Below, piece by piece: positions 1,077 to 28,418 of a stretch of DNA of 31,756 nucleotides (position 1 is the first letter of the stretch; the number at the start of each line of letters is the position of its first letter). Below the pieces are notes generated by a model. It was not told where the DNA came from and did no database searches. It saw only the letters and a list, made by a program, of their open reading frames with translations. The stretch lies in the IMG/VR virus record IMGVR_UViG_3300030060_001726, positions 1 to 31,756 of that record; one strand, written 5' to 3'. Both the position numbers and the translations under genes were made by a program. Origin of the DNA: a virus.

Positions 1077-2612
1077 TTATCCTAGTGCAATTGCTAAAGC
1101 TGTTGGATCATCAGTAACAGCTATAGTAACAGTGTCGGTTGCACTTGCTGTAGTTGTTATTCCAGTTCCAGCTGCTATTGTTAATGTGTTTCCACCAGTA
1201 ATCGTTTGATTAGATCCAGCAGAAGCAGCCACAATAAAGTTTGTCATATCTCCATCAGCTCCGTCAGCTCCAGCTGCACCAGTAGCGCCAGTTGCTCCAG
1301 TAGCTCCAGTAGCTCCAGTATCTCCTTTATCTCCATTTCTTGTAAAATGCACTGATACACCATCAGCTGCACTAAATGTGTTGTTTGATGCTAAATGTTG
1401 AACTACTAGTTTAGTATATCCTGAAGCATCTGTTGATGTTCCAGTTATTTTAAATCTTGCATAAGTTGAACTGTCTTGTGTATCAACAATATGCAGAAAT
1501 CCTTTTATAGTTGATGTACTATCATCCCAAGTAATTATGTCTGTTTGTATTGACACACCATTGTCATCAACATCATCAATATATATTTCAGTTACGTTTG
1601 CATAGTTTGCATTATTAAAAGCTATCTCTCCATTACCTGGATCAGTATCAGTTGTACCAGTATCAAACTTATACAAATAACCAGGTACAGTTCCGCCATC
1701 TTTTCCAGTAGCCACAAAACTTAAAAATACTTTATCGTTATTTGCAAAAGTTCCAAAGTTATCTATGTATGCTATTGAAAGTTTTGTGTAACCAGTATTA
1801 TCTGTAACTGCTCCAGTGATTCTAAATACCGCCCAAGTATCTAAGGTATTAGCCTTAGACATTCGTATCCTACCTCTATTAACAGTGTTTGCTACATCAT
1901 CAAAACTTTGCACCCAGGCAGAAACATCTGTGCCATTTATTTCAAGATCATCTACATAAGCTTCAGTTGCAGAAGCAAAAGTTGTATTGTTAAATCTTAT
2001 TACTCCATCACCAGGATCAGAGTCTGTGGTAGTTGTCGAATATGTAAATTGTGCAGCATCACCTCCTATTGGTAAAAAATCTGCTACTGTAGTTAAATTT
2101 CCATCACTATCAAAACCAAGAGTTTTTGATGCCCTTTCAGATGCGCTATCTGTAAATTCTGGTGTTGTGATTGTATTTGTTCTTGATACTTTAAATGATC
2201 TATCAAGCTGCTCTTGTAGTTCCTGGCTGATTAATGTCAATCTATCCAGGGCATTTTCATGGCTTTCAGCTGGGAAAGGATCATTAGCTACATAATCGGT
2301 TGATTGTGTAATATCTAATGCACGCCTTATAATTACAGTTTCACCAGATTGCGGCCTTTTATCTGAGCTAGAAAAATGTGCATCACTGCTAGTGCCAGTA
2401 TTAAATTTAAATAAAACATTACCGCCACTATCATTACCAGCATTAGTAACAATATAATCAGTGTCTAAAACCTTTACTGTTTCAGTTCCAGTAGAGCTTC
2501 TTATGATTACATCTAAATCACCATTTGCAAAAATCTTAAAACCATAAGGAAATGAGTGTTGTGTGCCATTTCCATCGGCAGAATTTTTAATAATTTTTAT
2601 ATCTACTGTCAT
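1077..2612 (-). CDS. T7 gp17-like tail fibre with duplicated domain and collagen-like stalk
   Basis: 511 residues. Residues 1-150 resemble the T7 tail-fibre N-terminal virion-attachment domain: an early GNGTQHSFPYGFKIF motif, then 'DYVANDPFPAESHENALDRL' and a short coiled-coil-like helix (LISQELQEQLDRSFKV). Residues about 188-303 and 311-424 are two copies of one domain. Both open with a D-x-DPG-(D/N)-G-x-I-x-FNN motif, share VDD/IDD and W-DD positions, and end in a GYTKL strand. Residues about 427-455 are Gly-X-Y collagen-like repeats (GATGATGATGA and similar). The C-terminal 55 residues are Thr-rich beta. The start overlaps the end of the preceding large ejection-protein gene by 4 bases. 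The role is reversible or irreversible receptor binding. This is the longest fibre gene visible; the tip is probably supplied by the downstream genes. Confidence 0.85.
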   Translation of the reverse strand: MTVDIKIIKNSADGNGTQHSFPYGFKIFANGDLDVIIRSSTGTETVKVLDTDYIVTNAGNDSGGNVLFKFNTGTSSDAHFSSSDKRPQSGETVIIRRALDITQSTDYVANDPFPAESHENALDRLTLISQELQEQLDRSFKVSRTNTITTPEFTDSASERASKTLGFDSDGNLTTVADFLPIGGDAAQFTYSTTTTDSDPGDGVIRFNNTTFASATEAYVDDLEINGTDVSAWVQSFDDVANTVNRGRIRMSKANTLDTWAVFRITGAVTDNTGYTKLSIAYIDNFGTFANNDKVFLSFVATGKDGGTVPGYLYKFDTGTTDTDPGNGEIAFNNANYANVTEIYIDDVDDNGVSIQTDIITWDDSTSTIKGFLHIVDTQDSSTYARFKITGTSTDASGYTKLVVQHLASNNTFSAADGVSVHFTRNGDKGDTGATGATGATGATGAAGADGADGDMTNFIVAASAGSNQTITGGNTLTIAAGTGITTTASATDTVTIAVTDDPTALAIALG

Positions 2613-5086
2613 CGTGATTCCTCAAAAATGTTGGATAAATCTACTGATCTATCTGGTGCTGCACTACCAGGCCGCCACCAGTAAGATTGGTTATATTCTC
2701 TTGCATACTTTCTTTCTATGTTTCTAAATTTTCTTGCGGCTTTTGGATCAGCCATTTGTTCTAATTGTTGTAATATGTTTCTTTCTAAAGCTAACCTTGA
2801 ATACCAAAGCGAGCTACCTGGTGTATATCTACCAGCGAATCTCACCATATCACTTGCAAAGTTTGTATCTTCACCCTCAATAGCTTGTTGAACATTACCC
2901 ATTGTCAATTTTAAAACATCTTCAGCCAAGCCTACTACTGGGCCAGCTATTGTTTGTGCCAGGCCGCCACCGAATCTATTATGATCGGACATTAAAAAAT
3001 CCCCAAAAATACCAAGGCCGCCACTTTGCATAAATGCAGCTCCCCAGAAACCAGCGCTTGTCATTGGTCTAGGATCACGGCCTTTTGACATTTCTTTTAG
3101 TTGCAAGGCTAGCGCACCCATGATTGTTCCAGTAATTAAAAAATCAGCCAGGTATGTACCTTTTCTCGCAGCTCCTTTTTGTGTAACTCCTCTTACTAAA
3201 TGTGTATTTACTAGCGTTGTTCCAAAGTTTTTATACATTGCAAAAGACCTGGAAAGCTCGCCAGCTATTGTTCCAGGATTTGTGTTACCTATCAAAGCAA
3301 CCTTACCTCGCAAGCTTGATGATGGTACTGCAAAGTTTGTTTCAGTATTTATCATCTCTAATACTCTTAGAGATAAATCCCTAGCAGTATTACTATCTAT
3401 ATCTGTTCTTGCTGCTATGTTCTCGTGGCTTAAAAATTTTGCGCCGTCATATTCATACAAATCTGTAGATCTAATAATATCCCACTTATCGGATCCTATA
3501 CCATATCTTTGTAAGCTTGCTCTTATAGGCTCGTCTAACTCGTTAAATGCTTTTGGCGCTTGATCTGCAAGGTAACCTAAAAACTCCATCCCAAACGCCC
3601 ATCTACCAGCTTGTGTAAGTGGAGATAAAAAGCTTGCCCTCATAACAAAATCAGATATACGCCTGGTTATCTCTGGACCAGATACATCACCAACATACCT
3701 CATTTGCGCAGCCGCTACAGTTGTCCACCCCTCAGCTATCAAACCTAGCCTTACTGCCAGCTTACCTTTTTCTTCAGCTTTGAGAGGATTTAATAATTTT
3801 AAAACATCAGTTACAGTGCTTACTTGCGGTAATCCAACAAAACCCCTGGTAATTCTTTGAAAGTTAAAATCAGTTATTGCTGATATTGATGCAGCACCTA
3901 ATTGTGCTGAAGTAAGTATAGATCTTATGCCAGCAAAAGTATTTCCAAAAAATCCATCAATAGGCTGATTAACTCTACCAGACCAGCCGTTATATAATGT
4001 ATCTATATAGTTTGCAGCTTTGTTAGCTTTGTTGATAGCCTTTGGATCTCCAGGCTCTACATTTTGTTTTATTTTAGTTTTTATAAAATCTAAAGTTGCC
4101 AGAGGATTCGGACCTAATATATCCATCTGTGCTATTTCTTTTGACATAGATGTAATGTGGCCCATCATCACATCAAAAGCATTAGTGTTACCAAATTTTT
4201 CCTGGTATTCTAACCAGGCATCCGCATCCTTGAAAACTAAAAATCTATGATCTGTTCTGCTATTAGCCAAAGATTTTCTATTGCTAGCCATTGCGCCAGG
4301 TTTTACTTTATTTAAACCACCGCTGCTAATTGTTTCCCATACATCTTGTAAAGCAAATATTAATCTATCTTCAGTCATTTTAAGACCAGTTTCATGGTCT
4401 AACATTTTTTCTGGATCTAGTCTGTCTTTTACAAAGCTAACCCATTCTGACATACCAGCCTTGCCTACTTCAATCTGGTCATGTTGCTGCGGCAATCCCC
4501 AATCAGATCTTTTTGGAATAGATCCACCAGCTCTATTAAATTGTAATCTTAGATCCTCGGCAGTTTCTTTCCAGGCTATTGCAAACTCTTTTGCGCTTAC
4601 ATCATCAGTAGTTTCTCCAAAAACTTCCCTGACCATATTTTTCAGTTGCGCTTTGTTTCTTGTAGATCCCAGCAAGTTTCTTTTAAATGTAGCCAGAACA
4701 TCATACATTTTACTTGTAGCTCTTTGCTCAATAGCTTGTTGACGTTGCACCAGGCTAGAATATTTTGAAAAAATATCTTGTTCTATTAGAGCTTCAGCTG
4801 CTTTTGCATAGTCTTGTTTATCTCCAAAACCTCTATATTCATTTAAATTTTTATCTACTTGTTTGAACGCCTGGACCTGGAGTAACTTTTTTCTTTTCTT
4901 TTCAGAAGCAAGCTTTTGTAAACTTTCAAAAGTTTCTTTTGCAGCTCTTGCAGCAGCTGCACCTCTATTCATTTTGCCCTGGTATTCTACATCTAATCCA
5001 ATATATAGATCACTAGCAAGCCTTGCCTGGTCATCGGTTAGATTGCCCTCACGATTACCATTAGTAATACAATCCAAAAAACTCAT
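2609..5086 (-). CDS. Large internal virion (ejection) protein, gp16-like position
   Basis: 825 residues. I chose the ATG at 5086 because it overlaps the stop of the preceding gene as ATGA; an ATG three codons earlier is possible. The protein is mostly helical. Residues 1-120 are charged and Ala/Lys-rich (AAAARAAKETFESLQKLASEKKRKK). The middle holds amphipathic segments, and Gly/Ala-rich hydrophobic stretches lie around residues 640-720 (LITGTIMGALALQL; GFWGAAFMQSGGLGIFGDFL). These suit a protein ejected into the host envelope, like T7 gp16. No lytic transglycosylase motif is recognisable, unlike T7 gp16. It sits between the ParB/zeta protein and the tail fibre, where T7 has gene 16. The family assignment is by position and character rather than by a clear motif. 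Confidence 0.7.
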   Translation of the reverse strand: MSFLDCITNGNREGNLTDDQARLASDLYIGLDVEYQGKMNRGAAAARAAKETFESLQKLASEKKRKKLLQVQAFKQVDKNLNEYRGFGDKQDYAKAAEALIEQDIFSKYSSLVQRQQAIEQRATSKMYDVLATFKRNLLGSTRNKAQLKNMVREVFGETTDDVSAKEFAIAWKETAEDLRLQFNRAGGSIPKRSDWGLPQQHDQIEVGKAGMSEWVSFVKDRLDPEKMLDHETGLKMTEDRLIFALQDVWETISSGGLNKVKPGAMASNRKSLANSRTDHRFLVFKDADAWLEYQEKFGNTNAFDVMMGHITSMSKEIAQMDILGPNPLATLDFIKTKIKQNVEPGDPKAINKANKAANYIDTLYNGWSGRVNQPIDGFFGNTFAGIRSILTSAQLGAASISAITDFNFQRITRGFVGLPQVSTVTDVLKLLNPLKAEEKGKLAVRLGLIAEGWTTVAAAQMRYVGDVSGPEITRRISDFVMRASFLSPLTQAGRWAFGMEFLGYLADQAPKAFNELDEPIRASLQRYGIGSDKWDIIRSTDLYEYDGAKFLSHENIAARTDIDSNTARDLSLRVLEMINTETNFAVPSSSLRGKVALIGNTNPGTIAGELSRSFAMYKNFGTTLVNTHLVRGVTQKGAARKGTYLADFLITGTIMGALALQLKEMSKGRDPRPMTSAGFWGAAFMQSGGLGIFGDFLMSDHNRFGGGLAQTIAGPVVGLAEDVLKLTMGNVQQAIEGEDTNFASDMVRFAGRYTPGSSLWYSRLALERNILQQLEQMADPKAARKFRNIERKYAREYNQSYWWRPGSAAPDRSVDLSNIFEESR

Positions 5087-8000
5087 ACTACACAACCCTC
5101 AAGGCGGTCCAGCATACGCTGGTCTTGCGCAAATTCTTCTTGTAATTCTTTTAATGTTTGTGTTTTGGCTACAATACTATCGCCATCTACAGTTAGTTCT
5201 GTTGGAACTTCTAAATCTAAATCATCGACTAAGCTTGTTTGTTCTGCAATTTCTTGACCTGGGCCATCAATTCTTTGCCCTGGGATGTTGTCAACCACTG
5301 CTCCGCCACTTGCTCCCCTTTCTCCTCCGCTGCTGCGAAATTGTAACCCCTCAAAGATTCCGTCTGTATCTTCTCGGATTGTTGGGATTTCTCCAAGTTT
5401 TTGGTTGTTGTCGACTTCGGCGTAACCATCAGCTTTCCTTTGTTGTTTCAAACTAACGTAAGTTTGATTCGGTTTTGCTCCTACACTTCTAACATAAACT
5501 GGACTAACTAATCTACCAGTATTAATAAATCTTTTTAGCATCCTGGTTAGTGCATTTTGAGGCGTTACATCCATATTCGCTAGTGTAACTGTATAACCTT
5601 TTGCTTTTAGATTATCTATTTGTTTCTGAATACTACCTACTGTATCTCCCACTTTTGGGATAACTACATTAGATCCCTCATCAGTAATCAAATCTTTAAC
5701 AAGCTTTGCTAGTGCAGAGCTTTCCTCATGCACCGCAGCTGCACCTATGCCACCTTGAAATTCTGGTAATATTTTTTTCGCATCATCAGAATCTATGATT
5801 GCTGCATTAAGTTTTCTAGCAACCTGGTTAGCAAAAGTACTCTTACCAGCAGCTGGAGGACCAAGCAATATAACCGCTTTTTTCTCAGTTTTTACTCTAT
5901 AACCTGGTGGTACTTCAAGCTTCGCATCGGTGTATGCCAGCTTTTTCGCTCTGTCAATTAGCGAGTTTACGCCTTGAGCGTACCCTTTTAAGTTCATTCC
6001 GTCAACAACAAAATCTCTATTATCAAACCAATCTTTTGATCCATAGTTCGCAGCTTCATGTGTTTTTGGTATTGCATCAGCTTCTTCAATAGCTCTAATC
6101 ACTGCTGGATGATTGTCTATCTCAGCATCCGTCATGCCCTGGTCAAGCTTTGTATTTAGATCTTGCCTAGCTTCCAGGTCCGATAAAAAACCCTCTTGCC
6201 GTCTTAACTCACCAAACTGATCTTCTTCTAACTGATTTGATTGCTGCCTGGATCCTGGTCCAGCTGGTTCGTCAAAGTCGTTGAGGTTTGAGTTTGTTGG
6301 TTCATTCTCACTTGTGCGGACTTTCGCTTCACCATCGAAAGAGCGTCTGACGTTGCCAAACTCAAGGCGGTTGAAATCGCCCTGGTTAATTGCAGATCTG
6401 ACAGAGTTAATAAATCCTCTTGAAGCGTTGGTATAGTTGCCGCTTTCCCTGGCAAGTCTGGCTGCATCGTTGAGAGCATCGCTGAGTTGCCCTTTTCTGT
6501 TTGCAAGCGTTGTGATGAGCGTGATCGCTTGGCCATCTTTTGATACCCTTTCTTGGTTAGCGTTTCTTGCTAGCTGATTTCCCTCAGCTTCTAATCTTTC
6601 TGCATTATTAACAAGGTTTTGAAAAGCATTTTTATCCTGGCGTAATGCTTTTTGTGCCATATCTAATATCCTGGCTCTTTCTACAAAGAAACTTTCAGCC
6701 ATTACTTCTTCGCCAAAAAGGTTTGCGGTTGTTTCTTTTCTTACTCCTGATTCAATAACTTGTCTTACTATAGCATCAGCTTGGAACTCATTGTCTGGCA
6801 TATTCCTGGCCAACACTCTCATTGCAGCTTCTTGTAATGCTGAATCATCTGGTATTAATCTTCCAACAACCGCTGCAAACTTTGCTGGTACTACATCGTT
6901 TACAACCATACCAAATAATTCATCGGTAAGATTTACAACCGCCCTGGCTTGTTTTACAAGGTTTGATCTTGGCGGTAGCTCACTTATCTTACTTGGATCT
7001 ACTCGCAATACCTTTGCAGCATCAACCGCAGTGCCAGTACCCTCAGCAATATTTTTTAGTGCAGCAGTTACCCTGGCATAAGCTGGAGTAAATCCGTCAA
7101 CCTCTCTTATCTTCATTCCATACAAAGTTACATCCTGGCCCTCAGCTTTTAATCTTTTTGCCAGGCCCAATCTTTGATGGCCGTCTGCAATGAACTGCCT
7201 ACCATCGGCATATTCATAAACTACAATTTGTCCAGATTTTATTGGATCCCATTTTTTTACACCTTGCAAAGCATCAGTAACACCCTGAGCATCACCGCCA
7301 GCTTTGAACTGAAAAAGTTTTGCATCTACTTGTAAATTATCTGGATCAAACTTAAAAACTTCATTATTTAAATTATCAGACTCAAAAACATTCTTTGGCT
7401 TGATAACGCTTGATTCTGGTACTTCGTTTATGTTTACCAGGTCGTTTGATTCTATCGCTAATTCAGCATCATTCAATCTTTGTAAATGCTCGGATTCACT
7501 TGATAAGGGATTTGAATTTACTGCATCTTCTGAATTTTGAGCAGCCTTTACAAGTAAATCTGCTTTACTATTTGGTTTTATAAAGCCAGCTTTTTTGTAA
7601 GCATCTATTCCTTTTTTTATCTGATCGCTTGTAAAAGATATTGTCTTGCCACCAGCTCTAAAAACAAAAGGTGATGCCGCACCAAAGCCAGCACCAAAAG
7701 CAATAGCTTGCCAGAACTGTGCATCAGTATATTCCAGGCCAGTGCTTTTATACCATTTTTTTACATTGTTTTGAATTAGCGCTTCTGATCCAGCACCAAT
7801 TATAGCTTGATTCAAAGCTAGCTGGTAAAGTTTACCAGGACCATTACCAAACATTAAACTACCAATAATAACTGGATCTTGTATTAATGATCCAGCTTCA
7901 CCAGTTAACCTGGCTAATACATTACTAAAACTTGGTGATCGTTCTGTAATCTCCTGATTTTCTTTGAAAGCAAGCCTTGCTTGTTCTTTGGCATTTTCAA

Positions 8001-8376
8001 TAAGTTTTTCATGGCTGAACTCACCAAACAAATCTGGATTATCTTTAATTATTTTTGATATTTCATTAACTTTTTTTTCATATCCAGCGTACTTTCTTTC
8101 TTCATTAAAAATAGACATCGATAAAAGTTTGCCAGGATTTACAACATCATTAGGCAATCCTAGCTTTTGTTTATTCTCATTTATTGTTTGTATGTATGGA
8201 TCCCACTGCTCCTCCATAACAATAGATTCTGAAACTGAGGTATTGTTATATTCACTATACTTGTAAGCAGCTTTTAGGTTATCAATAAAACTAGCTTCAC
8301 CAGTTGTAACTACTGTACCAGGCGTTGCCTTTGTTCCAGTACGTTGCTCCTCCTCTTTTGTATAAAGAAAACTCAT
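5083..8376 (-). CDS. Ejection 'polyvalent' protein with ParB-like and zeta-toxin-like kinase domains
   Basis: 1097 residues. Residues 1-150 are helical and charged. Residues about 165-245 hold hydrophobic Gly/Ala-rich stretches (IIGSLMFG, AIAFGAGFGAASPFVF) suited to membrane insertion. Residues about 352-480 match a ParB/Srx-like domain, with GRQFIADGHQRLGLAKRL at 392-409 as the hallmark. Residues about 828-990 look like a zeta-toxin/P-loop kinase: Walker A GPPAAGKST at 839-847, an acidic DSDD at 862-865, HEESS at 883-887, and R945, R949 and R955 in an R-x3-R-x5-R run ending TGR. Zeta toxins phosphorylate UDP-N-acetylglucosamine; that activity here is inference. Its place among the gp14/gp15/gp16-like genes makes it a virion-carried, ejected protein. 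ParB-like and zeta domains are known in phage polyvalent proteins. Confidence 0.8.
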   Translation of the reverse strand: MSFLYTKEEEQRTGTKATPGTVVTTGEASFIDNLKAAYKYSEYNNTSVSESIVMEEQWDPYIQTINENKQKLGLPNDVVNPGKLLSMSIFNEERKYAGYEKKVNEISKIIKDNPDLFGEFSHEKLIENAKEQARLAFKENQEITERSPSFSNVLARLTGEAGSLIQDPVIIGSLMFGNGPGKLYQLALNQAIIGAGSEALIQNNVKKWYKSTGLEYTDAQFWQAIAFGAGFGAASPFVFRAGGKTISFTSDQIKKGIDAYKKAGFIKPNSKADLLVKAAQNSEDAVNSNPLSSESEHLQRLNDAELAIESNDLVNINEVPESSVIKPKNVFESDNLNNEVFKFDPDNLQVDAKLFQFKAGGDAQGVTDALQGVKKWDPIKSGQIVVYEYADGRQFIADGHQRLGLAKRLKAEGQDVTLYGMKIREVDGFTPAYARVTAALKNIAEGTGTAVDAAKVLRVDPSKISELPPRSNLVKQARAVVNLTDELFGMVVNDVVPAKFAAVVGRLIPDDSALQEAAMRVLARNMPDNEFQADAIVRQVIESGVRKETTANLFGEEVMAESFFVERARILDMAQKALRQDKNAFQNLVNNAERLEAEGNQLARNANQERVSKDGQAITLITTLANRKGQLSDALNDAARLARESGNYTNASRGFINSVRSAINQGDFNRLEFGNVRRSFDGEAKVRTSENEPTNSNLNDFDEPAGPGSRQQSNQLEEDQFGELRRQEGFLSDLEARQDLNTKLDQGMTDAEIDNHPAVIRAIEEADAIPKTHEAANYGSKDWFDNRDFVVDGMNLKGYAQGVNSLIDRAKKLAYTDAKLEVPPGYRVKTEKKAVILLGPPAAGKSTFANQVARKLNAAIIDSDDAKKILPEFQGGIGAAAVHEESSALAKLVKDLITDEGSNVVIPKVGDTVGSIQKQIDNLKAKGYTVTLANMDVTPQNALTRMLKRFINTGRLVSPVYVRSVGAKPNQTYVSLKQQRKADGYAEVDNNQKLGEIPTIREDTDGIFEGLQFRSSGGERGASGGAVVDNIPGQRIDGPGQEIAEQTSLVDDLDLEVPTELTVDGDSIVAKTQTLKELQEEFAQDQRMLDRLEGCVV

Positions 8377-10496
8377 TAGTTAAATCCATAGAATTGTAAA
8401 GCATCTAAAATTATTTCATTTCCATTTAGATCGCCAGCAATCAAAAAATCTGGATCACCAGGCGTACCCCTGGCTAGCTTGTACTTACCATCTCCGACAA
8501 CATAAAGATTGTATTCTTCATCTTGAATATCTTTAAGAAGCTTTGCATCTATGTTAAAACCTTGAGCTGCAAAATCTTCTAACTTTATGTCATCAAGCAT
8601 ATCTTCAAGTTTATCTGCATCTAGTTCTTTTGGTATTACTACTGGATGACCATTTACTTTATCAACATTACCTACTGCCATTTTTATTGCATCAGCATAT
8701 ACATTGTTTCTAAAAAACTGTAATCCTTGATCGTTTGCCATTTTATTGTAAATTAGATCAGATACTTGTTTTGCTGCTCCCTGGACTTCCGCTGGCGTAA
8801 ATAATAAAGCATTGCCTAATGTATTAGAATATTCTGCTTGTGTATTTATGTTCGTAGCTTCTGGAGCTTTTTTACCAGCATTTTTAAGATCTAAACCTTG
8901 CAATGCAAACTTTGCATTATCAATCAAGCCTAGCTGCATTAGACCGCCAATATGCGCAAGTTCTGGTGCGCCTTTTTGTGATAGCTCTGCCAAAACATCT
9001 GAAGCGTGTCTGCCAAAACCCTGGTTTAATTTATTTAAAACTAAAAGCTTTTGTTCTGTGCTAGTTGTACTAGCTTCAAAAAATGCTTTTAAACTGCTAG
9101 CTTCTTCGTCTTTTAAAAATTTCAGCGCAGATCCATATTGGCCAGATACGGCCACTGCTTCACTAATTCTTTTACTAACACGAACTTCGTAGTTTCCAGA
9201 TAGAGATCTATCACCAGGATTAGCCACTACATCAACAAAATTTATAGGCGTAATTTTTGTATTGCCAGCTCTTTCAGCAAAAGTAAGCGGATCTCTTTTC
9301 AGTTCGGATCTCATATTTGTTTCAAGAGTTTTGAGATCGCTTACTATTTCTGCTTCAATCAATGTATCTATGCCAGCTGCACCAGCTCCAGGTATTCCCT
9401 CGGTTGAATACTTTGTAATCTCAGCAGTAAGAGATGCCATGTTTGTTTTCCTGGCAACATCAAATATTTGTTTTTTTAATTTAAGATTATTAGCTAGTGC
9501 AATTAATTCTACGCCATCTGCGCCCATTGATTTTGCTTTGTTTTCCAAACCATTAATTACTTCAATATCAACAGTGCCACCTTTTTTAAAAATATTATTT
9601 ACTTCTTTCAAATCTATTTTTAATGATGCAGCTTGAGTTTTATTTATGGCTTTCATATTTTTTATATCAGTTCTTAGATTCCTTACTAAAACTCTTGCTT
9701 CTACTGAATCCATTGTTCCTGGTGGATTCTTTTCTAAGTTTTCTATAAATTTTTCTTTTCCCTCGATAGTTCCAATTTTTTGAAAGTTATCTACTACAGA
9801 ATTTTTTAAAATATCTTCTTGAGCTGCCTGACGTTTTACAGTAGCTTCAGTGTTTGTCATATATCCCAGGCTAACAAGCTTTGCATAGATACCATTTTGG
9901 CCAAACAATTCATTGGCAGCTTCAAGTTTTTCTGCTGCATTACCAACCACTGCTTGTTTTTTAAAATGATCTATTGAATTTATCAGCACCGCTGCTTGCT
10001 CATTAATTAATCTGTTCGAGGTATTAGATCTAACTGACACACTTTTATTTGTGAAAGCCAGGTCTGCTTTTATTAAGAAATCTCTTTGCGCAGCTTTGCT
10101 TGAAAATCCTTTTGATAAATCTTTTTTAAGTTTTTCAGAAGTTGCATTGAAATATCTATTACTAAGGCTGGGATCCATTTTAGAAGCTTCAAGCGCAGCA
10201 TTATTCAAAGCCTGGTTGTATTTTAATGTTCCATCAGCCAACTCAGATTCATATTTATTTTTTAATTCAGCTTCAAAAAAAGCTAGTTTCTTTTGTTCCG
10301 CTGCTTTAAATTCTTCTGTTTTTTGACGTTCTGCAATTTGCAAAGCATTTAAAGATGCAGTTTGTGCAGCTTCACCAAGCCTTGCAGTTGCTTGTGCTGC
10401 TTGCGATAAAGCACCAGGACTTGCTTGTACTGAAAGTTGCCTTGCACCAGTGCCGGTTGTTCTGGCAGTTTGTCTATTAAATGTAGGTACTTTCAT
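8376..10496 (-). CDS. Internal virion protein, gp15-like
   Basis: 706 residues, highly helical, rich in Ala, Lys, Leu and Asn, with no Cys-based motif and no membrane segment. The N-terminus (MKVPTFNRQTARTTGTGARQLSVQASPGALSQAAQA) resembles the start of gp15-type ejection proteins of marine podoviruses: a short basic segment then an Ala/Gln helix. Residues about 55-130 form a long charged coiled-coil-like region. The gene starts on the last base of the preceding gp14-like gene and ends on the first base of the ParB/zeta gene, so it is tightly coupled in the ejectosome block. Role inferred from T7: the ejected tube across the periplasm. The family assignment rests on size, order and composition. 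Confidence 0.72.
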   Translation of the reverse strand: MKVPTFNRQTARTTGTGARQLSVQASPGALSQAAQATARLGEAAQTASLNALQIAERQKTEEFKAAEQKKLAFFEAELKNKYESELADGTLKYNQALNNAALEASKMDPSLSNRYFNATSEKLKKDLSKGFSSKAAQRDFLIKADLAFTNKSVSVRSNTSNRLINEQAAVLINSIDHFKKQAVVGNAAEKLEAANELFGQNGIYAKLVSLGYMTNTEATVKRQAAQEDILKNSVVDNFQKIGTIEGKEKFIENLEKNPPGTMDSVEARVLVRNLRTDIKNMKAINKTQAASLKIDLKEVNNIFKKGGTVDIEVINGLENKAKSMGADGVELIALANNLKLKKQIFDVARKTNMASLTAEITKYSTEGIPGAGAAGIDTLIEAEIVSDLKTLETNMRSELKRDPLTFAERAGNTKITPINFVDVVANPGDRSLSGNYEVRVSKRISEAVAVSGQYGSALKFLKDEEASSLKAFFEASTTSTEQKLLVLNKLNQGFGRHASDVLAELSQKGAPELAHIGGLMQLGLIDNAKFALQGLDLKNAGKKAPEATNINTQAEYSNTLGNALLFTPAEVQGAAKQVSDLIYNKMANDQGLQFFRNNVYADAIKMAVGNVDKVNGHPVVIPKELDADKLEDMLDDIKLEDFAAQGFNIDAKLLKDIQDEEYNLYVVGDGKYKLARGTPGDPDFLIAGDLNGNEIILDALQFYGFN

Positions 10497-11068
10497 TAAC
10501 CAAACCTCGTTTGTGCAGTTTGTTTTTGTAAATTAATATTATTCTGGATTGATTGTCTGTTAAGATTTGCACCAGCTTGTATATTTGCAGCTGAGCTAAA
10601 TCCTCTAAGCAAACTTACACCAGCGTTTATATTACCAGCAGTTCTTGCAGTAGATCCGTAGAGTCTATTCAGTTGTGCTTGCATCCTATTTTGAACGGCG
10701 CTTTCTTCAAGCTCTTGGACACCAACCGCTGCATTATATTTTCTTATAGCTATTTCTTCATCAGCTTCTTTTGCATTTGCCAGGGCAATCTTCAATGGCG
10801 TACCACCCTCAGCAACAAATCCATTATATCTAAATGCCTGGCTTGTTGCATCCTGGAGATCGGAAAACTCTCTACGAAATCTAGCAATATCAAGTTGGCT
10901 TGCTATTTTTAATTGCACTGCATCTTGTTCATTAGCCAGGGCATTACGCTCATTTATATCTGCATTAAAATTATTAGCTGCTTGCTGAGCTTTACCAACG
11001 GCTCTAGCGCCGTTAGCGGCTACTACCGAACTAACTATAGTTGATGCTATTGCTGCTTCAATACCCAT
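10496..11068 (-). CDS. Internal virion protein, gp14-like
   Basis: 190 residues. An N-terminal hydrophobic segment (about residues 3-25, IEAAIASTIVSSVVAANGARAVG) is followed by a long Gln/Asn/Ala-rich helical region (NNFNADINERNALANEQDAVQL; YNGFVAEGGTPLKIALANAKEADEE). That is the typical architecture of T7 gp14-type ejection proteins, which enter the outer membrane at infection. It is the first of four consecutive ejection-type genes and overlaps the preceding gp13-like gene by one base. The phrase 'G-GTPL-IALANA-EA' is, from memory, well conserved in this family in marine podoviruses. Confidence 0.8.
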   Translation of the reverse strand: MGIEAAIASTIVSSVVAANGARAVGKAQQAANNFNADINERNALANEQDAVQLKIASQLDIARFRREFSDLQDATSQAFRYNGFVAEGGTPLKIALANAKEADEEIAIRKYNAAVGVQELEESAVQNRMQAQLNRLYGSTARTAGNINAGVSLLRGFSSAANIQAGANLNRQSIQNNINLQKQTAQTRFG

Positions 11069-11508
11069 TAAAAAACCTTTGCATATCTAAAATAATCGCT
11101 ACCATCTGGACCATATTTTCTCATAAGTCCCTCGTTTTCTAATCCCATAAACTGAGCAAACCTTTGAGCTTCTGGCCAATCTGCTCTTACTGCTGATTGA
11201 ATACGAACTAGTTTTTGCTCTTTTATCAGCCTTGGCAAATACTTAAAAATTATTTTCATCACTGGTCTTACATGGCTATGGACCTTATCAGTTGATAAAA
11301 ACCAAACTTCAGCAACACCTGGCCATAATTGTTTGATACCGCCGCAAGCTATCAGGTGGCCATTATCTATTGCACTAAATGATTGACCAGGAACATGAAG
11401 TCCTTTTGCAAAATCTAAATGTTCTTTTATGTGCTGCGGCGCACCTTTATTCATTTTGCCATCAAGTATTTCCTGGCCATGCTCTGGCTTGTAATCTGCC
11501 ACTATCAT
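11068..11508 (-). CDS. T7 gp13-like internal/assembly protein with GNAT-like fold
   Basis: 146 residues. The pattern is acetyltransferase-like: strand FSAIDNGHLIACGGIKQLWPGVAEVWFLS (about 44-72), helix VRPVMKIIFKYLPRLIKE (about 80-97), then VRIQSAVRADWPEAQRFAQFMGLENEGLMRKYGPDG (about 101-136). This arrangement is typical of T7 gp13 relatives, which are needed for assembly of the internal core and have a GNAT-like fold, probably without catalysis. Its start overlaps the tail tube B stop (ATGA), and it precedes the gp14-like gene, as in T7. A real acetyltransferase is possible but less likely in this position. Confidence 0.75.
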   Translation of the reverse strand: MIVADYKPEHGQEILDGKMNKGAPQHIKEHLDFAKGLHVPGQSFSAIDNGHLIACGGIKQLWPGVAEVWFLSTDKVHSHVRPVMKIIFKYLPRLIKEQKLVRIQSAVRADWPEAQRFAQFMGLENEGLMRKYGPDGSDYFRYAKVF

Positions 11509-13784
11509 TGATCGAAAGTTTGCAGCCTTGGGAAAATTGCTAATACTGTTGTTGGTAATGGCTGGTTTTGCTTGACTACAATAAATCCATCATTGTCAAA
11601 ACCACCTCTAAATTCTAATTCTTTATCACCAGTAAACATCGAAAGAGCAGTGTCCATATCATCAGCTGAGCTTCTAAATGGTATTCTATCTATTTCACTT
11701 TCACTGCTACCTACCTGGATTCCAACAGTTCTAAATAATCTCAATGTAATATCATGTATTCTTTTTATTTTTCCCTGGGCCGTACCCTCAGTGCCGCCAG
11801 CATCAACTCGCATTGTTTGTAAGGTTGAATCAAAACCTAATCCAATATGTGCTTTTGTAACTGATCTATCCAAAGTAATTGATCCAGAAGATACTGTTTT
11901 GTTTGGATGTGTAGCACCATTCGCCAGGATTGATACACTTTGGCCCTCTAAATGATTTAGGCCAGATATTGTAGTTGCTGCGGATCCGGTATACGATAAT
12001 CCACTATCTACAAAGAAAGCATCTTGAACATCAGTACCAAAATCAAAATTTGAAAAAGTTTCTATGTATCTTGCCGTTGCACCATTTATAGTTCTTTTAA
12101 CAACCAGGTAAACATTATCTTCATTGAGATCACCTGGTATAACCGCAACACTTTCAACCACTGCATTACCTGATCCAAAAGATCCACCAATAATATGTTC
12201 GTGCCAGCCAACAACATTTTCTTCTCGTCTATATGTCATGCCAACAAAACGGCCATCTGTTAAAACACACCAAACAATATTGTCTGGCTCTTGCTGAAAA
12301 GCCATTTCAGTTATACCGCTATCAGTAATATGCTCTGCAAGAACAGTTAAATCTGGAGCCTGGTAACTATCGGAATCAAAATTATATACAAGCTCTCTTA
12401 CTTTCCTTGATGCTCTTTGAACAAACATAGTTACGTTACCAACCTGGATAGGCTGAATATTTGCAGATCCATAATTAGCCTGGCGTTTTATTTGAGCGTT
12501 TGTAGGTGATAGAGGTTCGGCTGCGCCGCTTGCACTTACTGCAAACTCACCACCACTAGTTCCAACAATCAAAACTCTACTTGATGTAAGATACCTAATA
12601 ACATTTACCTGGTTAGATCCAATAGTATATGTCAAAGCATCATCAGCATCTATACCATCTGCAAAATCTTCAAAGCTGCCACCTACTGAAAAAAACAAAG
12701 TTTGTGGTTGTGCAGTTGTATTTGCAAAAACCAGGCGCTGCTCAAAAAATGTAACTGCTGCTGGATGGCCAGTTGTTGAGCTAAATGCTCCCAGGCTAAA
12801 ATTATCATCAGCTTCTAGCGCACCATTTATTGTTACTGAAGCACTTGCTGATTCATTCACCAGGTCGACACTTGGAGAAAACAAAATTGTATCAGCAGTT
12901 ACCTGGACTAATAAAACGGCAGTTGATTTATTATTACCGCCATTTGATGCACCAGATATTGTAACCTTTTGGCCTACTTTAAAACCCTCAGTTACAAAAT
13001 TACCAGCAGTGTCTGTAATTCTATCATTGTGTTCCAGGCCAGTTGAGCTTGGATCTCCCTCAAAAAATGCAATAGTTGTTGCGGTATAACTTGGCATCAG
13101 CTCAGTTCTACCCTCAGCATTTTCCTGGACAGTTGCGGTAACAGAGGTTGCACTTGAAAAGTTTGTTATCTTTGCAAAACCATCATGTAGCTTTACTAAT
13201 CTTCCAACATCAGTCGAAGCAAAAGTATCTGCGCTTGCAGTAATAGTAACACTACCAGTGCGGCCATTTGCAGTTAATGTTGTAGTTGTCGTATTAGGAT
13301 CTTGCATAGGACCACGGAGAAAATTTACCTCCGTTATTGTCCAAGCAGTATGACTTGTCCTGGTTATCTTTTGTACTGGATGTGATGGATGTACCAGGTA
13401 CATGACATCAGCGCTTTGTGTAAACTTTATTTCAGATACCTGGGCGCTAGTGTAAACAGTTGTAACTTCTATTGGATTTGAACTACCATCAACAACAGTG
13501 CCGCCATCTTTATGTATTCTAAAATAGTTTTCACCAAATTCTAATATATAAGCTTGCTCAACATTAAATTCAAAAGGTATTAGCCTGGTAAAATTTGAAC
13601 TTGTTTTTACAGAGTTTACATACTTCGTACCAGGTCTGCGACTTGCACCGCCATGAGGATGTATTAAAAAGTTTTGTAACTTTTTGCAGCCATTAAAATA
13701 TTTGTTTACATCAGTGCGGCCCTCTAACCTGGGCGATAATTCACCAGCAGTAAAATTATTAAATGGAGGTGAAGCCTTAGCCAT
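11505..13784 (-). CDS. Tail tubular protein B (gp12-like nozzle protein)
   Basis: 759 residues. The N-terminus reads MAKASPPFNNFTAGELSPRLEGRTDVNKYFNGCKKLQNF, then 'GGASRRPGTKYV', the clear hallmark of podovirus tail nozzle proteins (T7 gp12 family). The rest is beta-rich (FEQRLVFANTTAQPQTLFFS; ITEMAFQQEPDNIVWCVLTDGR; typical propeller-type strands), with a 'DGIDADDALTYTI' segment usual in this family. The length matches the family. It follows tail tube A without a gap and overlaps the gp13-like gene. It forms the distal tail tube through which DNA leaves. Confidence 0.9.
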   Translation of the reverse strand: MAKASPPFNNFTAGELSPRLEGRTDVNKYFNGCKKLQNFLIHPHGGASRRPGTKYVNSVKTSSNFTRLIPFEFNVEQAYILEFGENYFRIHKDGGTVVDGSSNPIEVTTVYTSAQVSEIKFTQSADVMYLVHPSHPVQKITRTSHTAWTITEVNFLRGPMQDPNTTTTTLTANGRTGSVTITASADTFASTDVGRLVKLHDGFAKITNFSSATSVTATVQENAEGRTELMPSYTATTIAFFEGDPSSTGLEHNDRITDTAGNFVTEGFKVGQKVTISGASNGGNNKSTAVLLVQVTADTILFSPSVDLVNESASASVTINGALEADDNFSLGAFSSTTGHPAAVTFFEQRLVFANTTAQPQTLFFSVGGSFEDFADGIDADDALTYTIGSNQVNVIRYLTSSRVLIVGTSGGEFAVSASGAAEPLSPTNAQIKRQANYGSANIQPIQVGNVTMFVQRASRKVRELVYNFDSDSYQAPDLTVLAEHITDSGITEMAFQQEPDNIVWCVLTDGRFVGMTYRREENVVGWHEHIIGGSFGSGNAVVESVAVIPGDLNEDNVYLVVKRTINGATARYIETFSNFDFGTDVQDAFFVDSGLSYTGSAATTISGLNHLEGQSVSILANGATHPNKTVSSGSITLDRSVTKAHIGLGFDSTLQTMRVDAGGTEGTAQGKIKRIHDITLRLFRTVGIQVGSSESEIDRIPFRSSADDMDTALSMFTGDKELEFRGGFDNDGFIVVKQNQPLPTTVLAIFPRLQTFDQ

Positions 13785-14375
13785 TTACAACCTCGCATTA
13801 ATAAATGTGTTTGCAGCTAATACCTCGCTATCCTGGATGCTAGAAGTATTAGTTGTATTACCCTCAGTTGCATCAACAAACCTGGCTTCTTTTAATTTAT
13901 CTCTATATAAAGTTGCAAGCTGAGATGCCAGGCTAATACTACCAGATAAAGGATAAGCTATATCAGCTGCAAGTGCAGCTACAATAGTTTCTAGCAAAAG
14001 AGTGTCATATTGGTTTGGATCAGTTACTTTTCCTACAAACACCAGATTGATTGTGCTTTCATCAGATAAAATTTTTCTACCCTCAAGCTCAAACTTTATT
14101 TCTGGATCTGAAAGTTTTAAGACTCGCAAACAAAATGGATCAGTAGGCAGCGTAAATTGTTTTGCAAAAGTAAAACTAGGCGCATCAGCATCAGGTGCTA
14201 GTGTCTGCCTGGTAATCAAACTATTCCAGGGATGAGATCTAAATGTTGCATCCCTTACAAACTCATATCTTTGATTGCATATCCTGGCAGCTTTACTATC
14301 TTCTGTAAGAGAAATAATATTAGATGCACCGATTTGATTCAAAGCTGAGTTACAAATATCTACTACTGAAGCCAT
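13785..14375 (-). CDS. Tail tubular protein A (gp11-like adaptor)
   Basis: 196 residues from the ATG at 14375, which has AGGAA upstream. An upstream in-frame extension is less likely because it would run through the terminator hairpin. MASVVDICNSALNQIGASNIISLTEDSKAARICNQRYE, then VRDATFRSHPWNSLITRQTLAP and FTLPTDPFCLRVLKL, are hallmarks of the T7 gp11 family. It forms the ring between the portal and the nozzle. It is the first gene after the intrinsic terminator that closes the capsid block, and it is directly followed by tail tube B. Confidence 0.9.
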   Translation of the reverse strand: MASVVDICNSALNQIGASNIISLTEDSKAARICNQRYEFVRDATFRSHPWNSLITRQTLAPDADAPSFTFAKQFTLPTDPFCLRVLKLSDPEIKFELEGRKILSDESTINLVFVGKVTDPNQYDTLLLETIVAALAADIAYPLSGSISLASQLATLYRDKLKEARFVDATEGNTTNTSSIQDSEVLAANTFINARL

Positions 14376-14387
14376 AATAATTCCTAT

Positions 14388-14414
14388 AAAAAAGCAGCGC
14401 ATTGCTGCGCTGCT
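14388..14414 (-). terminator. Intrinsic terminator after the capsid/decoration genes
   Basis: A perfect 9-bp stem (AGCAGCGCA / TGCGCTGCT, 14393-14401 and 14406-14414) with a TTGC loop is followed on the minus strand by six T residues (14393-14388). It lies between the decoration-like gene and the start of tail tube A. T7 has its main terminator at the same place, just after the capsid gene and before gene 11. It probably lowers tail gene expression relative to capsid. Confidence 0.85.
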
Positions 14415-27021: not shown

Positions 27022-27354
27022 ATGGGAAACTCACCACAATTTTCAAATACAAATATGAAATTTCAGAGGGCAGTAGGCGCATCTGACGATAACCCTGGAC
27101 AAAAAGTTAAGGTAAGTATCTGGCTTAACTTTGATAATGGCTGGGATGATGTAAACAAAATACCTTTTCCGCCTACACCTGAGCAGCAAAAATCTATTGA
27201 AGATATACATAAACAAATAAAAGATTTGGGGATGGAACTATCAGTGCAGCTGCAAACTGATAGTAAAATGAATATTGCCAGGACTAGGGCATTTTGTAAC
27301 GAGCTTCGTTACGAAACTAAAGATGAATCTATTAGCGGATTTGATGATCTCTAA
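27022..27354 (+). CDS. Small acidic-tailed protein, possible single-strand DNA-binding accessory
   Basis: 110 residues with an AGGAGA ribosome site. Residues 1-45 include 'NTNMKFQRAVGASDDNPGQKVKVSIWLNFDNGW', then 'EQQKSIEDIHKQIKDLGMELSVQLQTDSKMNIARTRAFCNELRYE' and an acidic end ISGFDDL. An acidic, Phe-containing tail is a feature of SSB proteins, but no OB-fold could be confirmed by eye. It is the last gene of the recombination block and its stop overlaps the convergent integrase stop by 4 bases. Function unproven. Confidence 0.5.
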   Translation: MGNSPQFSNTNMKFQRAVGASDDNPGQKVKVSIWLNFDNGWDDVNKIPFPPTPEQQKSIEDIHKQIKDLGMELSVQLQTDSKMNIARTRAFCNELRYETKDESISGFDDL

Positions 27355-28418
27355 AAATTTATCTTGGCAATCTTTTGTTGCAGCTTTTGTTTTCTAGCTA
27401 AGTCTTGCATCCAGTGGCCGTAGACGTTTTGAGTTATCTTAATATCGCTATGGCCCATAAGATTTGAAACTGTCCAAATATCATCACCAAAATGCTCAAG
27501 CATCTTACTGGCGTAGTAATGTCTGAGATCGTGCCACCTCAAAGTTTTATCACTTACTTTCTTAACTACCTTTTGCAGCTGCTCCAGCCAGTAGCTTCTT
27601 CCTATCATCGTGTTGTATTTAGTGCCAAACACAAAGTTTGTTTTACCTGGTCTACCTTTTTTTATGTAAAGCTCTTTCAGCTCTTTTAAAATTTTACCAG
27701 GGATAGGCACTATTCTATTTGAAGTATTTGTTTTGACCAGGCCCACGCCATGCTTTTCGATCTCATCATCAACAACAACCTTGAGCTTTGCGCTTCGTCT
27801 TACATTAACTTCAGACATTTTAAAATCAATATCATCCCAGGTCAAAGCTCGTTGCTCACCAGCTCTTAGGCCAGTGCTGCAAGCAAATCTGTAAGCTAGT
27901 CTAATTGATTCTGGTAAATGGCTATCAATCTCATGGATAAAATCAGTAGATAGTTTTTCAATCTTAGGCTGCTGCTCAACGATAGGTCTTTTGAACTCAG
28001 CATCTAACATGGGATTTTGCGCCAGGCAGTTTCTGCTTTTGCAAAAAGATAAAAACTTATTAAAACAAGATCGCATCTCTTTCACAGTTTTGAAGCTTCG
28101 CTTACCTTTTTTACCGCTATTAAATAATGTGGGGAGGATGTAGGATTCACAATGTTCTACAGTGAGATCCCTTGGTTTGAGCTGGCCAACAGTGCAGCTA
28201 CCTACATTGATTGCCAGGATTGTATCAAAGATATTTTTGTATTTATCAAAATAATCTGGCAGCGGTTTGCCGCCTTTCATGTTTTTGTATTCTCTAAAAT
28301 AAAATGTTCTTAGAAAATGATTATTTTTCAGTCTTATATCCCAATCTTTCCTGGCATCTTGGCATGGGAACTCACCAAGCAATTCTTGTATTGTCCAGTT
28401 TTCTATTTGTTTTTTCAT
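27351..28418 (-). CDS. int: Tyrosine recombinase integrase
   Basis: 355 residues. A core-binding domain (about 60-150, with FKTVKEMRSCFNKFLSFCKSRNCLAQNPM) precedes the catalytic domain. Catalytic residues: R185 in STGLRAGE, K229 in the beta-hairpin (LVKTNTSNR), H296-x-x-R299 in LRWHDLRHYY, H323 in LMGHS and Y333 in TQNVYGHW. All are present, so the enzyme should be active. AAGGAG precedes the ATG, and a strong sigma-70 promoter with an operator-like element lies just upstream. It shows that the phage can probably integrate. No attP core could be identified, because that needs a host sequence. Confidence 0.95.
   Translation of the reverse strand: MKKQIENWTIQELLGEFPCQDARKDWDIRLKNNHFLRTFYFREYKNMKGGKPLPDYFDKYKNIFDTILAINVGSCTVGQLKPRDLTVEHCESYILPTLFNSGKKGKRSFKTVKEMRSCFNKFLSFCKSRNCLAQNPMLDAEFKRPIVEQQPKIEKLSTDFIHEIDSHLPESIRLAYRFACSTGLRAGEQRALTWDDIDFKMSEVNVRRSAKLKVVVDDEIEKHGVGLVKTNTSNRIVPIPGKILKELKELYIKKGRPGKTNFVFGTKYNTMIGRSYWLEQLQKVVKKVSDKTLRWHDLRHYYASKMLEHFGDDIWTVSNLMGHSDIKITQNVYGHWMQDLARKQKLQQKIAKINF

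What the first reader, a model, noticed from the sequence alone, without database searches (positions are those of the whole stretch)
5083..8376. Virion-ejection protein with both a ParB-like and a zeta-toxin-like kinase domain
The 1097-residue protein lies among gp14/15/16-type ejection genes and has hydrophobic segments suited to membrane entry, a ParB-like domain (about 352-480) and a kinase with Walker A GPPAAGKST at 839-847 and the Arg series 945/949/955 near its end. Zeta toxins poison cell-wall synthesis by phosphorylating UDP-N-acetylglucosamine; no epsilon-type antitoxin is evident next to it. If it is injected with the DNA it could inhibit wall synthesis, alter nucleotide pools or block rival phages at the first minute of infection. 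It also replaces or supplements T7 gp16, of which the transglycosylase part is not seen.
Basis: partly seen in the sequence, partly recalled or inferred. Interest (0 to 1): 0.78.

Follow-up and report, generated by a model that had tools for sequence, protein, structure and literature searches.

The report
Phage ejection protein with swappable enzyme
A protein that this marine phage probably packs in its head and ejects into the cell with its DNA has a socket near its end which, in related phages, holds a zeta-toxin-type kinase, an alarmone-synthetase-type enzyme, an RNase-type domain or nothing, so the phages seem to swap what they inject.

Summary
The ORF lies on the minus strand (8376..5083, 1097 aa), in a tail-tube/internal-virion-protein operon. 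It has a ParB-like core and a real zeta-fold kinase (Pfam Zeta_toxin E 8e-18; best solved-structure match zeta toxin, Z 16). Position makes it the counterpart of epsilon15 gp16 rather than T7 gp16.

Among 86 distinct related slots, 56 hold this kinase, 25 an alarmone-synthetase-like nucleotidyltransferase (structural matches include the T6SS toxin Tas1), and 5 are essentially empty. Prophage relatives carry a PBECR1 RNase domain or nothing there. Near-identical cores carry unrelated fillings. In 70 of 70 loci the next gene overlaps or abuts, so no immunity gene fits directly downstream.

The UDP-GlcNAc idea is weak: the catalytic Asp is invariant, but substrate-contact Thr118 is Val in 53 of 56 and Arg120 is not kept. 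The acceptor is unknown.

Likely an ejected, effector-swapping polyvalent protein. Polyvalent proteins and MuF polymorphic toxins are close precedents, so this is a new variant of a known kind. Packaging, ejection and activity are inferred.

The parts
5083..8376 (-). Whole gene, 1097 aa, epsilon15-gp16-position ejection-type protein
   Evidence: position
7387..8376 (-). N-terminal region (aa 1-330), mostly helical, conserved within the family
   Evidence: AF2 model; alignment
6211..7359 (-). ParB-like core (aa 340-722) with invariant ADGHQR (aa 397-402)
   Evidence: phrog_10691 E 4e-64; Noc 7nfu Foldseek E 5e-4; invariant columns
5221..6210 (-). Exchangeable slot (aa 723-1052)
5425..5898 (-). 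Zeta-toxin-fold kinase (aa 827-984; structural match aa 775-1006)
   Evidence: Pfam PF06414 E 8e-18; 1gvn_B Z 16.2 over 198 residues
5836..5862 (-). Walker A GPPAAGKST (aa 839-847)
   Evidence: K845 and S846 invariant 56/56
5785..5793 (-). D862-S-D864; D864 aligns with the catalytic base Asp67 of zeta
   Evidence: profile alignment to 1gvn; both Asp 56/56
5512..5544 (-). Arg series R945, R949, R955
   Evidence: each 56/56; R949 aligns with zeta Arg158
5086..5220 (-). Conserved C-terminal tail (aa 1053-1097) closing the slot
   Evidence: found in complete family copies; dN/dS 0.05-0.16
2609..5095 (-). Downstream gp17-like virion structural protein (828 aa), overlapping the gene end by 13 bases
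   Evidence: phrog_684 E 4e-183; homologous to phiV10p20; adjacent in 70/70 loci
8376..10496 (-). Upstream 706-aa protein in the gp15 position
   Evidence: gene order against phiV10; adjacent homologue in 65/85 loci
10496..11068 (-). Internal virion protein (gp14 position)
   Evidence: phrog_418 E 5e-5
11068..11508 (-). Internal virion protein (gp13 position), GNAT-like
   Evidence: phrog_4177 E 2e-26, phrog_308 E 4e-9
11505..13784 (-). Tail tube B
   Evidence: phrog_376 E 3e-233
13785..14402 (-). Tail tube A
   Evidence: phrog_394 E 2e-48

Best explanation
It is an internal virion (ejection) protein of an HTVC010P-like podovirus, sitting where epsilon15 has gp16. The N-terminal part and the tail package the protein and let it be ejected with the DNA (inferred from position). 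The ParB-like core probably handles the entering DNA or a nucleotide (inferred from fold). A slot just before the tail carries an exchangeable enzyme, here an intact P-loop kinase of the zeta/AvrRxo1 group that phosphorylates a small nucleotide-type acceptor of unknown identity in the newly infected cell, probably not UDP-GlcNAc. Relatives inject an alarmone-synthetase-type enzyme, an RNase-type domain or nothing through the same slot, so the system works like a polymorphic toxin delivered by a virion, without a linked immunity gene. Shown by sequence and predicted structure: architecture, slot exchange, synteny, kinase and synthetase folds, conserved active-site residues, purifying selection. 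Inferred: packaging, ejection, timing, toxicity, substrate.
For: Zeta fold: Pfam E 8e-18; AF2 model with pLDDT about 85-96 in the domain; best matches 1gvn Z 16.2 and 3q8x Z 16.1. Slot census: 86 distinct slots = 56 kinase, 25 synthetase-like, 5 short. The alternative filling folds as a small alarmone synthetase: 8vx3 Z 14.7, Tas1 6ox6 Z 14.5 and Foldseek E 2e-7. PBECR1 RNase domain at the slot in two Aureimonas relatives, E 1e-8 and 5e-8, absent from close prophage relatives L182-L184. Exchange: L057/L063 cores 89% and L075/L076 83% identical with different fillings; L050 (kinase) and L067 (synthetase-like) are sister cores (tree) with near-identical tails; at least 11 changes of filling on a 67-core tree. 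Kinase dN/dS 0.07-0.20; L005/L007 core dS about 0.21 against kinase dS 0.80. gp17-like gene directly downstream in 70/70 loci.
Against: No virion proteomics, ejection experiment or enzyme assay was available. P0001 shows no detectable sequence homology to phiV10 gp16 (hhalign prob 0.7; tail profile no better than shuffles), so equivalence rests on position alone. The ParB assignment rests on fold and motif, not on a family model. Whole-model pTM is 0.35, so domain arrangement is unknown.
Confidence: 0.68

Rival explanations
1. One reading: the kinase is a true zeta toxin that phosphorylates UDP-N-acetylglucosamine and blocks wall synthesis.
For: Best structural match is the zeta toxin, including the UDP-GlcNAc-bound form 3q8x; catalytic Asp67 equivalent D864 is invariant. 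Iyer et al. 2017 give the same reading for zeta-like kinases of conjugative-element polyvalent proteins and phage MuF fusions (PMC5512222).
Against: Thr118 (contacts the beta-phosphate; Thr to Val abolishes PezT toxicity) is Val in 53/56, Arg120 is mostly Gly/Asp/His, and the Glu100 and Thr128 positions are variable. The family has its own invariant set (H883, E885, S886, P907, G910, R955, N990). A zeta+ParB protein also occurs in a haloarchaeal virus, whose host is not expected to have murein (own knowledge).
Confidence: 0.12
2. The slot enzymes are not toxins but counter-defence or nucleotide-repair enzymes: the kinase might repair cleaved RNA/DNA ends or alter NAD or other cofactors used by host defence.
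For: Structural matches include AvrRxo1 (Z 14.0, an NAD 3'-kinase per PMC5087710) and bacterial polynucleotide kinase (Z 13.9); the sequence profile also matches Pnkp1. Roles in conflict with the host are proposed for polyvalent proteins (PMC5512222).
Against: The match to zeta extends over N-terminal helices outside the polynucleotide-kinase match (model 775-1006 against 830-1011). The other fillings, alarmone synthetase and PBECR1 RNase, are typical toxin domains.
Confidence: 0.28
3. The protein is made late and acts inside the producing cell or in assembly, and is not ejected.
For: No virion proteomic data were found for any close homologue.
Against: Syntenic with gp17-like and upstream internal virion genes across the family; epsilon15 gp15 and gp17/16 are assigned to its packaging/injection device (PMC12391199 citing Guichard 2013), and epsilon15 ejects internal virion proteins (PMC8954989).
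Confidence: 0.1
4. The kinase domain is a decayed passenger without activity.
For: The slot can be empty in relatives with otherwise intact genes.
Against: Active-site residues 56/56 conserved; dN/dS 0.07-0.20.
Confidence: 0.03

Closest known systems
Polyvalent proteins of phages and conjugative elements (Iyer et al. 2017, PMC5512222)
   Same: Large multidomain protein in a late structural gene cluster, ParB-like domain joined to effector-type domains; zeta-like kinase, RelA/SpoT, PBECR1 and ART all occur in that class.
   Different: Here a conserved core and tail frame one defined slot whose content is exchanged between near-identical proteins. [quoted passage not shown] a ParB+zeta protein at a podoviral gp16 position was not found in the passages read.
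MuF polymorphic toxins, e.g. Apk2 (PMC12226406)
   Same: Phage head-associated protein with variable toxic C-terminal domain, including RelA/SpoT-like (p)ppApp synthetase.
   Different: No MuF domain was reported by Pfam here; the variable module is followed by a conserved tail; no immunity gene fits directly downstream, whereas apk2 is followed by iapK and aph1; this is a podoviral ejection-cluster gene.
Zeta/PezT toxins
   Same: Fold, P-loop, catalytic Asp, Arg158 equivalent.
   Different: Named UDP-GlcNAc contacts other than the catalytic Asp not kept; no epsilon antitoxin; fused into an ejection-cluster protein.
Halovirus HCTV-5 gene 114
   Same: Annotated 'zeta toxin and ParB nuclease domain protein', near capsid genes.
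   Different: Archaeal virus with a MuF-like gene nearby; only its zeta part matched P0001, 28% identity.
Epsilon15/phiV10 gp16 and HTVC034P gp44
   Same: Same place in the ejection gene order.
   Different: phiV10 gp16 is 600 aa with no Pfam domain above cut-off; HTVC034P gp44 is 1229 aa with LPD38; no detectable homology of the phiV10 protein to the core.

Membership tests
Zeta toxin family (PF06414) | Match above Pfam's curated cut-off | tested here: met
   65.1 bits against 22.3
Zeta toxin family (PF06414) | P-loop Lys and catalytic Asp (Asp67) | tested here: met
   K845 and D864, 56/56
UDP-GlcNAc-phosphorylating zeta/PezT toxins | Substrate contacts Thr118 and Arg120 (with Glu100, Thr128) | tested here: not met
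   V909 in 53/56; position 911 mostly G/D/H; 891 and 919 variable
UDP-GlcNAc-phosphorylating zeta/PezT toxins | Adjacent epsilon-type antitoxin | tested here: not met
   Downstream gene overlaps or abuts in 70/70 loci; upstream gene overlaps in the window
UDP-GlcNAc-phosphorylating zeta/PezT toxins | Kinase activity on UDP-sugars, toxicity | not testable with these tools
   needs assay
Polyvalent proteins | Several conflict-type domains in one large protein within a phage structural gene cluster | tested here: met
DdrB-like ParB | ParB/Srx fold with conserved active-site Arg | tested here: inconclusive
   Foldseek to Noc E 5e-4; invariant ADGHQR; no Pfam ParB or ddrB-ParB match
Polymorphic toxins | Conserved delivery part with interchangeable toxin-type module | tested here: met
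   that the core delivers is inferred
Polymorphic toxins | Linked immunity gene | tested here: not met
   no room directly downstream in 70/70 loci
MuF polymorphic toxins | MuF domain | tested here: inconclusive
   No MuF-type family was reported by Pfam, PHROGs or NCBIfam for the protein; a missing match does not exclude a divergent one
Podoviral ejection proteins (epsilon15 gp16 position) | Place between gp15 and gp17 genes | tested here: met
Podoviral ejection proteins (epsilon15 gp16 position) | Presence in virion and ejection into the cell | not testable with these tools
   needs virion mass spectrometry
T7 gp16 | N-terminal lytic transglycosylase | tested here: not met
   no such domain by Pfam in this protein or in the tested neighbours of the cluster

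The most novel reading that the evidence does not exclude
Marine podoviruses, including relatives of the SAR11 phage HTVC010P, use a component of the DNA ejection apparatus as a general delivery platform for interchangeable enzymes, swapped by recombination inside one framed slot and needing no linked immunity gene: a virion counterpart of polymorphic toxins aimed at the infected cell itself.
Probability: 0.55. Interest if true: 0.76.

Novelty: new variant of a known kind. Interest (0 to 1): 0.62.

Why it matters
If true, part of the ejection machinery of a marine phage group doubles as an injector of swappable enzymes acting in the first minutes of infection. That gives a testable system (same scaffold, kinase, synthetase-like, RNase-like or empty) to ask what injected enzymes do for a phage. 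It also adds a kinase subfamily whose substrate is open, and a warning that 'zeta toxin' annotations in phages need not mean UDP-GlcNAc.

Tried and rejected
Homology of core or tail to phiV10 gp16: rejected (hhalign prob 0.7; tail profile scored like shuffled sequence). Sequence search of PDB with the core profile: nothing meaningful. ParB by Pfam: no match. Transmembrane segments: none by hydropathy. Pfam for the synthetase-like filling: no match; it was recognised only by structure. A first clustering of slots by loose blast joined everything and was replaced by one requiring coverage. The second nucleotidyltransferase-like filling (L057, L076) is probably a distant synthetase relative (hhalign E 7e-6, prob 84%) and was not modelled. 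Several slots of the broader set stay unassigned (L201, L205, L209, L210, L211, L250, L269); L212 resembles ART-PolyVal below cut-off, L258 holds a second, different zeta domain. Literature searches for an ejection protein with such domains gave only the polyvalent-protein paper. No isolate with a close full-length homologue was found.
Full report
WHAT IS THERE. The window is a 31.8-kb virus contig whose major capsid protein is 66-68% identical to those of pelagiphages HTVC034P, HTVC035P and HTVC010P. It also has an integrase gene. The finding is a minus-strand gene, 8376..5083, 1097 aa. Upstream in the operon are tail tube A and B, two internal-virion-protein families and a 706-aa protein; downstream is an 828-aa virion structural protein, phrog_684. 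Phage phiV10, an epsilon15 relative, has the same order: tail protein, gp13, gp14, gp15, gp16, gp17, and its gp17 is homologous to the window's 828-aa protein. The gene is therefore in the gp16 position of epsilon15. A paper on epsilon15, citing genomic analysis, assigns gp15 and gp17/16 to its packaging/injection device (PMC12391199). A review states that epsilon15 ejects internal virion proteins on infection (PMC8954989). No sequence homology to phiV10 gp16 could be shown, so this rests on position.

THE KINASE IS REAL. Pfam Zeta_toxin matches residues 827-984, E 8e-18. The AlphaFold2 model is confident there (pLDDT about 85-96). The best solved matches are zeta 1gvn (Z 16.2, 198 residues), UDP-GlcNAc-bound zeta 3q8x (Z 16.1), PezT (15.1), AvrRxo1 (14.0) and a bacterial polynucleotide kinase (13.9). 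In 56 distinct homologous slots the P-loop K845/S846, D862, D864, R945, R949 and R955 never vary. dN/dS of the domain is 0.07-0.20 between close relatives (Nei-Gojobori script).

THE SUBSTRATE IS PROBABLY NOT UDP-GlcNAc. A family profile aligns to zeta at E 1.8e-7. Zeta Asp67, the catalytic base, is D864 (56/56). Thr118, which contacts the UDP-GlcNAc beta-phosphate and whose change to Val abolishes PezT toxicity (PMC3062530), is Val in 53/56. Arg120 is mostly Gly, Asp or His; the Glu100 and Thr128 positions vary. The family instead has its own invariant residues (H883, E885, S886, P907, G910, N990). AvrRxo1 shows that this fold can phosphorylate NAD (PMC5087710). The acceptor here is unknown.

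THE KINASE SITS IN A SWAPPABLE SLOT. Residues 1-722 and the last 45 residues are conserved; what lies between is exchanged. Three scans of IMG/VR and one of bacterial genomes gave 86 distinct slots: 56 kinase, 25 synthetase-like, 5 with 4-27 residues only. The synthetase-like module, invisible to Pfam, folds as a small alarmone synthetase (8vx3 Z 14.7; T6SS effector Tas1 Z 14.5). Two of the 25 are a distant version. On a 67-core tree the filling changes at least 11 times. L057/L063 cores are 89% and L075/L076 83% identical with different fillings. L050 (kinase) and L067 (synthetase-like) are sister cores whose alignment stays near-identical up to the slot, apart from one insert in L050, and again in the tail. 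L005 and L007 have core dS about 0.21 but kinase dS 0.80, as expected if the kinase allele itself was exchanged. In a second lineage, two Aureimonas genomes carry a PBECR1 RNase domain at the slot (E 1e-8 and 5e-8), while close prophage relatives L182-L184 have none. A wider scan added more kinases and synthetases, a second, different zeta domain (L258) and an ART-PolyVal-like domain below cut-off (L212).

NO LINKED IMMUNITY GENE. The gp17-like gene starts between 12 bases before and 0 bases after the end of this gene in 70 of 70 loci. The window's upstream gene also overlaps. An immunity gene elsewhere in the genome is not excluded.

PARB-LIKE CORE. I treat it as likely but not settled.

INTERPRETATION. 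The most economical reading is an ejected polyvalent protein with one framed effector slot. It works like a polymorphic toxin delivered by a virion, but no MuF domain was seen and it lacks linked immunity. The wider idea has precedents: Iyer et al. 2017 (PMC5512222) describe polyvalent proteins with ParB, RelA/SpoT and PBECR domains, and zeta-like kinases in conjugative-element polyvalent proteins and fused to MuF in phages; MuF-Apk2 toxins are experimentally characterised (PMC12226406); a haloarchaeal virus gene is annotated with zeta and ParB domains. What appears new is the framed, recurrently exchanged slot in a podoviral gp16-position protein of HTVC010P-like and related phages, and the evidence against UDP-GlcNAc. 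Packaging, ejection, timing and toxicity are inferred. Whether the fillings harm the host, exclude rivals or counter defence cannot be decided from sequence.

Noticed in passing
window 27351-28418 (-): Integrase (phrog_1 E 8e-48) in a contig with an HTVC010P-like capsid, suggesting a temperate member of this group.
   Followed up: no
window 11068-11508 (-): The internal virion protein in the gp13 position resembles a GNAT acetyltransferase (Pfam E 0.008, below cut-off; HTVC034P counterpart annotated acetyltransferase).
   Followed up: no
L191:13588-17277 (Pelagibacter phage HTVC034P gp44): At the ejection position this cultured pelagiphage has a 1229-aa protein with polyvalent domain LPD38 (E 3e-37).
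   Followed up: partly
L050, residues about 297-430 of its homologue: Insert of roughly 130 residues inside the core, absent from its sister L067; content unidentified.
   Followed up: no
L253:5638-10083: Homologue whose slot region carries a weak GNAT match, a second ParB-like stretch and the synthetase-like domain in series.
   Followed up: partly
L098 (Dunaliella viridis virus SI2): Record assigned to an algal host but with a podoviral ejection operon homologous to the window's; may be a bacteriophage.
   Followed up: no
L096:5651-13366 (Prochlorococcus phage P-SCSP1a_00021): 2571-aa protein with a distant ParB-core match (26%), guessed to be an internal virion protein by position in PMC9860041.
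   Followed up: partly
window 1077-2612 (-): Tail fibre with a short collagen-like repeat at residues 427-454 (E 9e-5, below cut-off).
   Followed up: no
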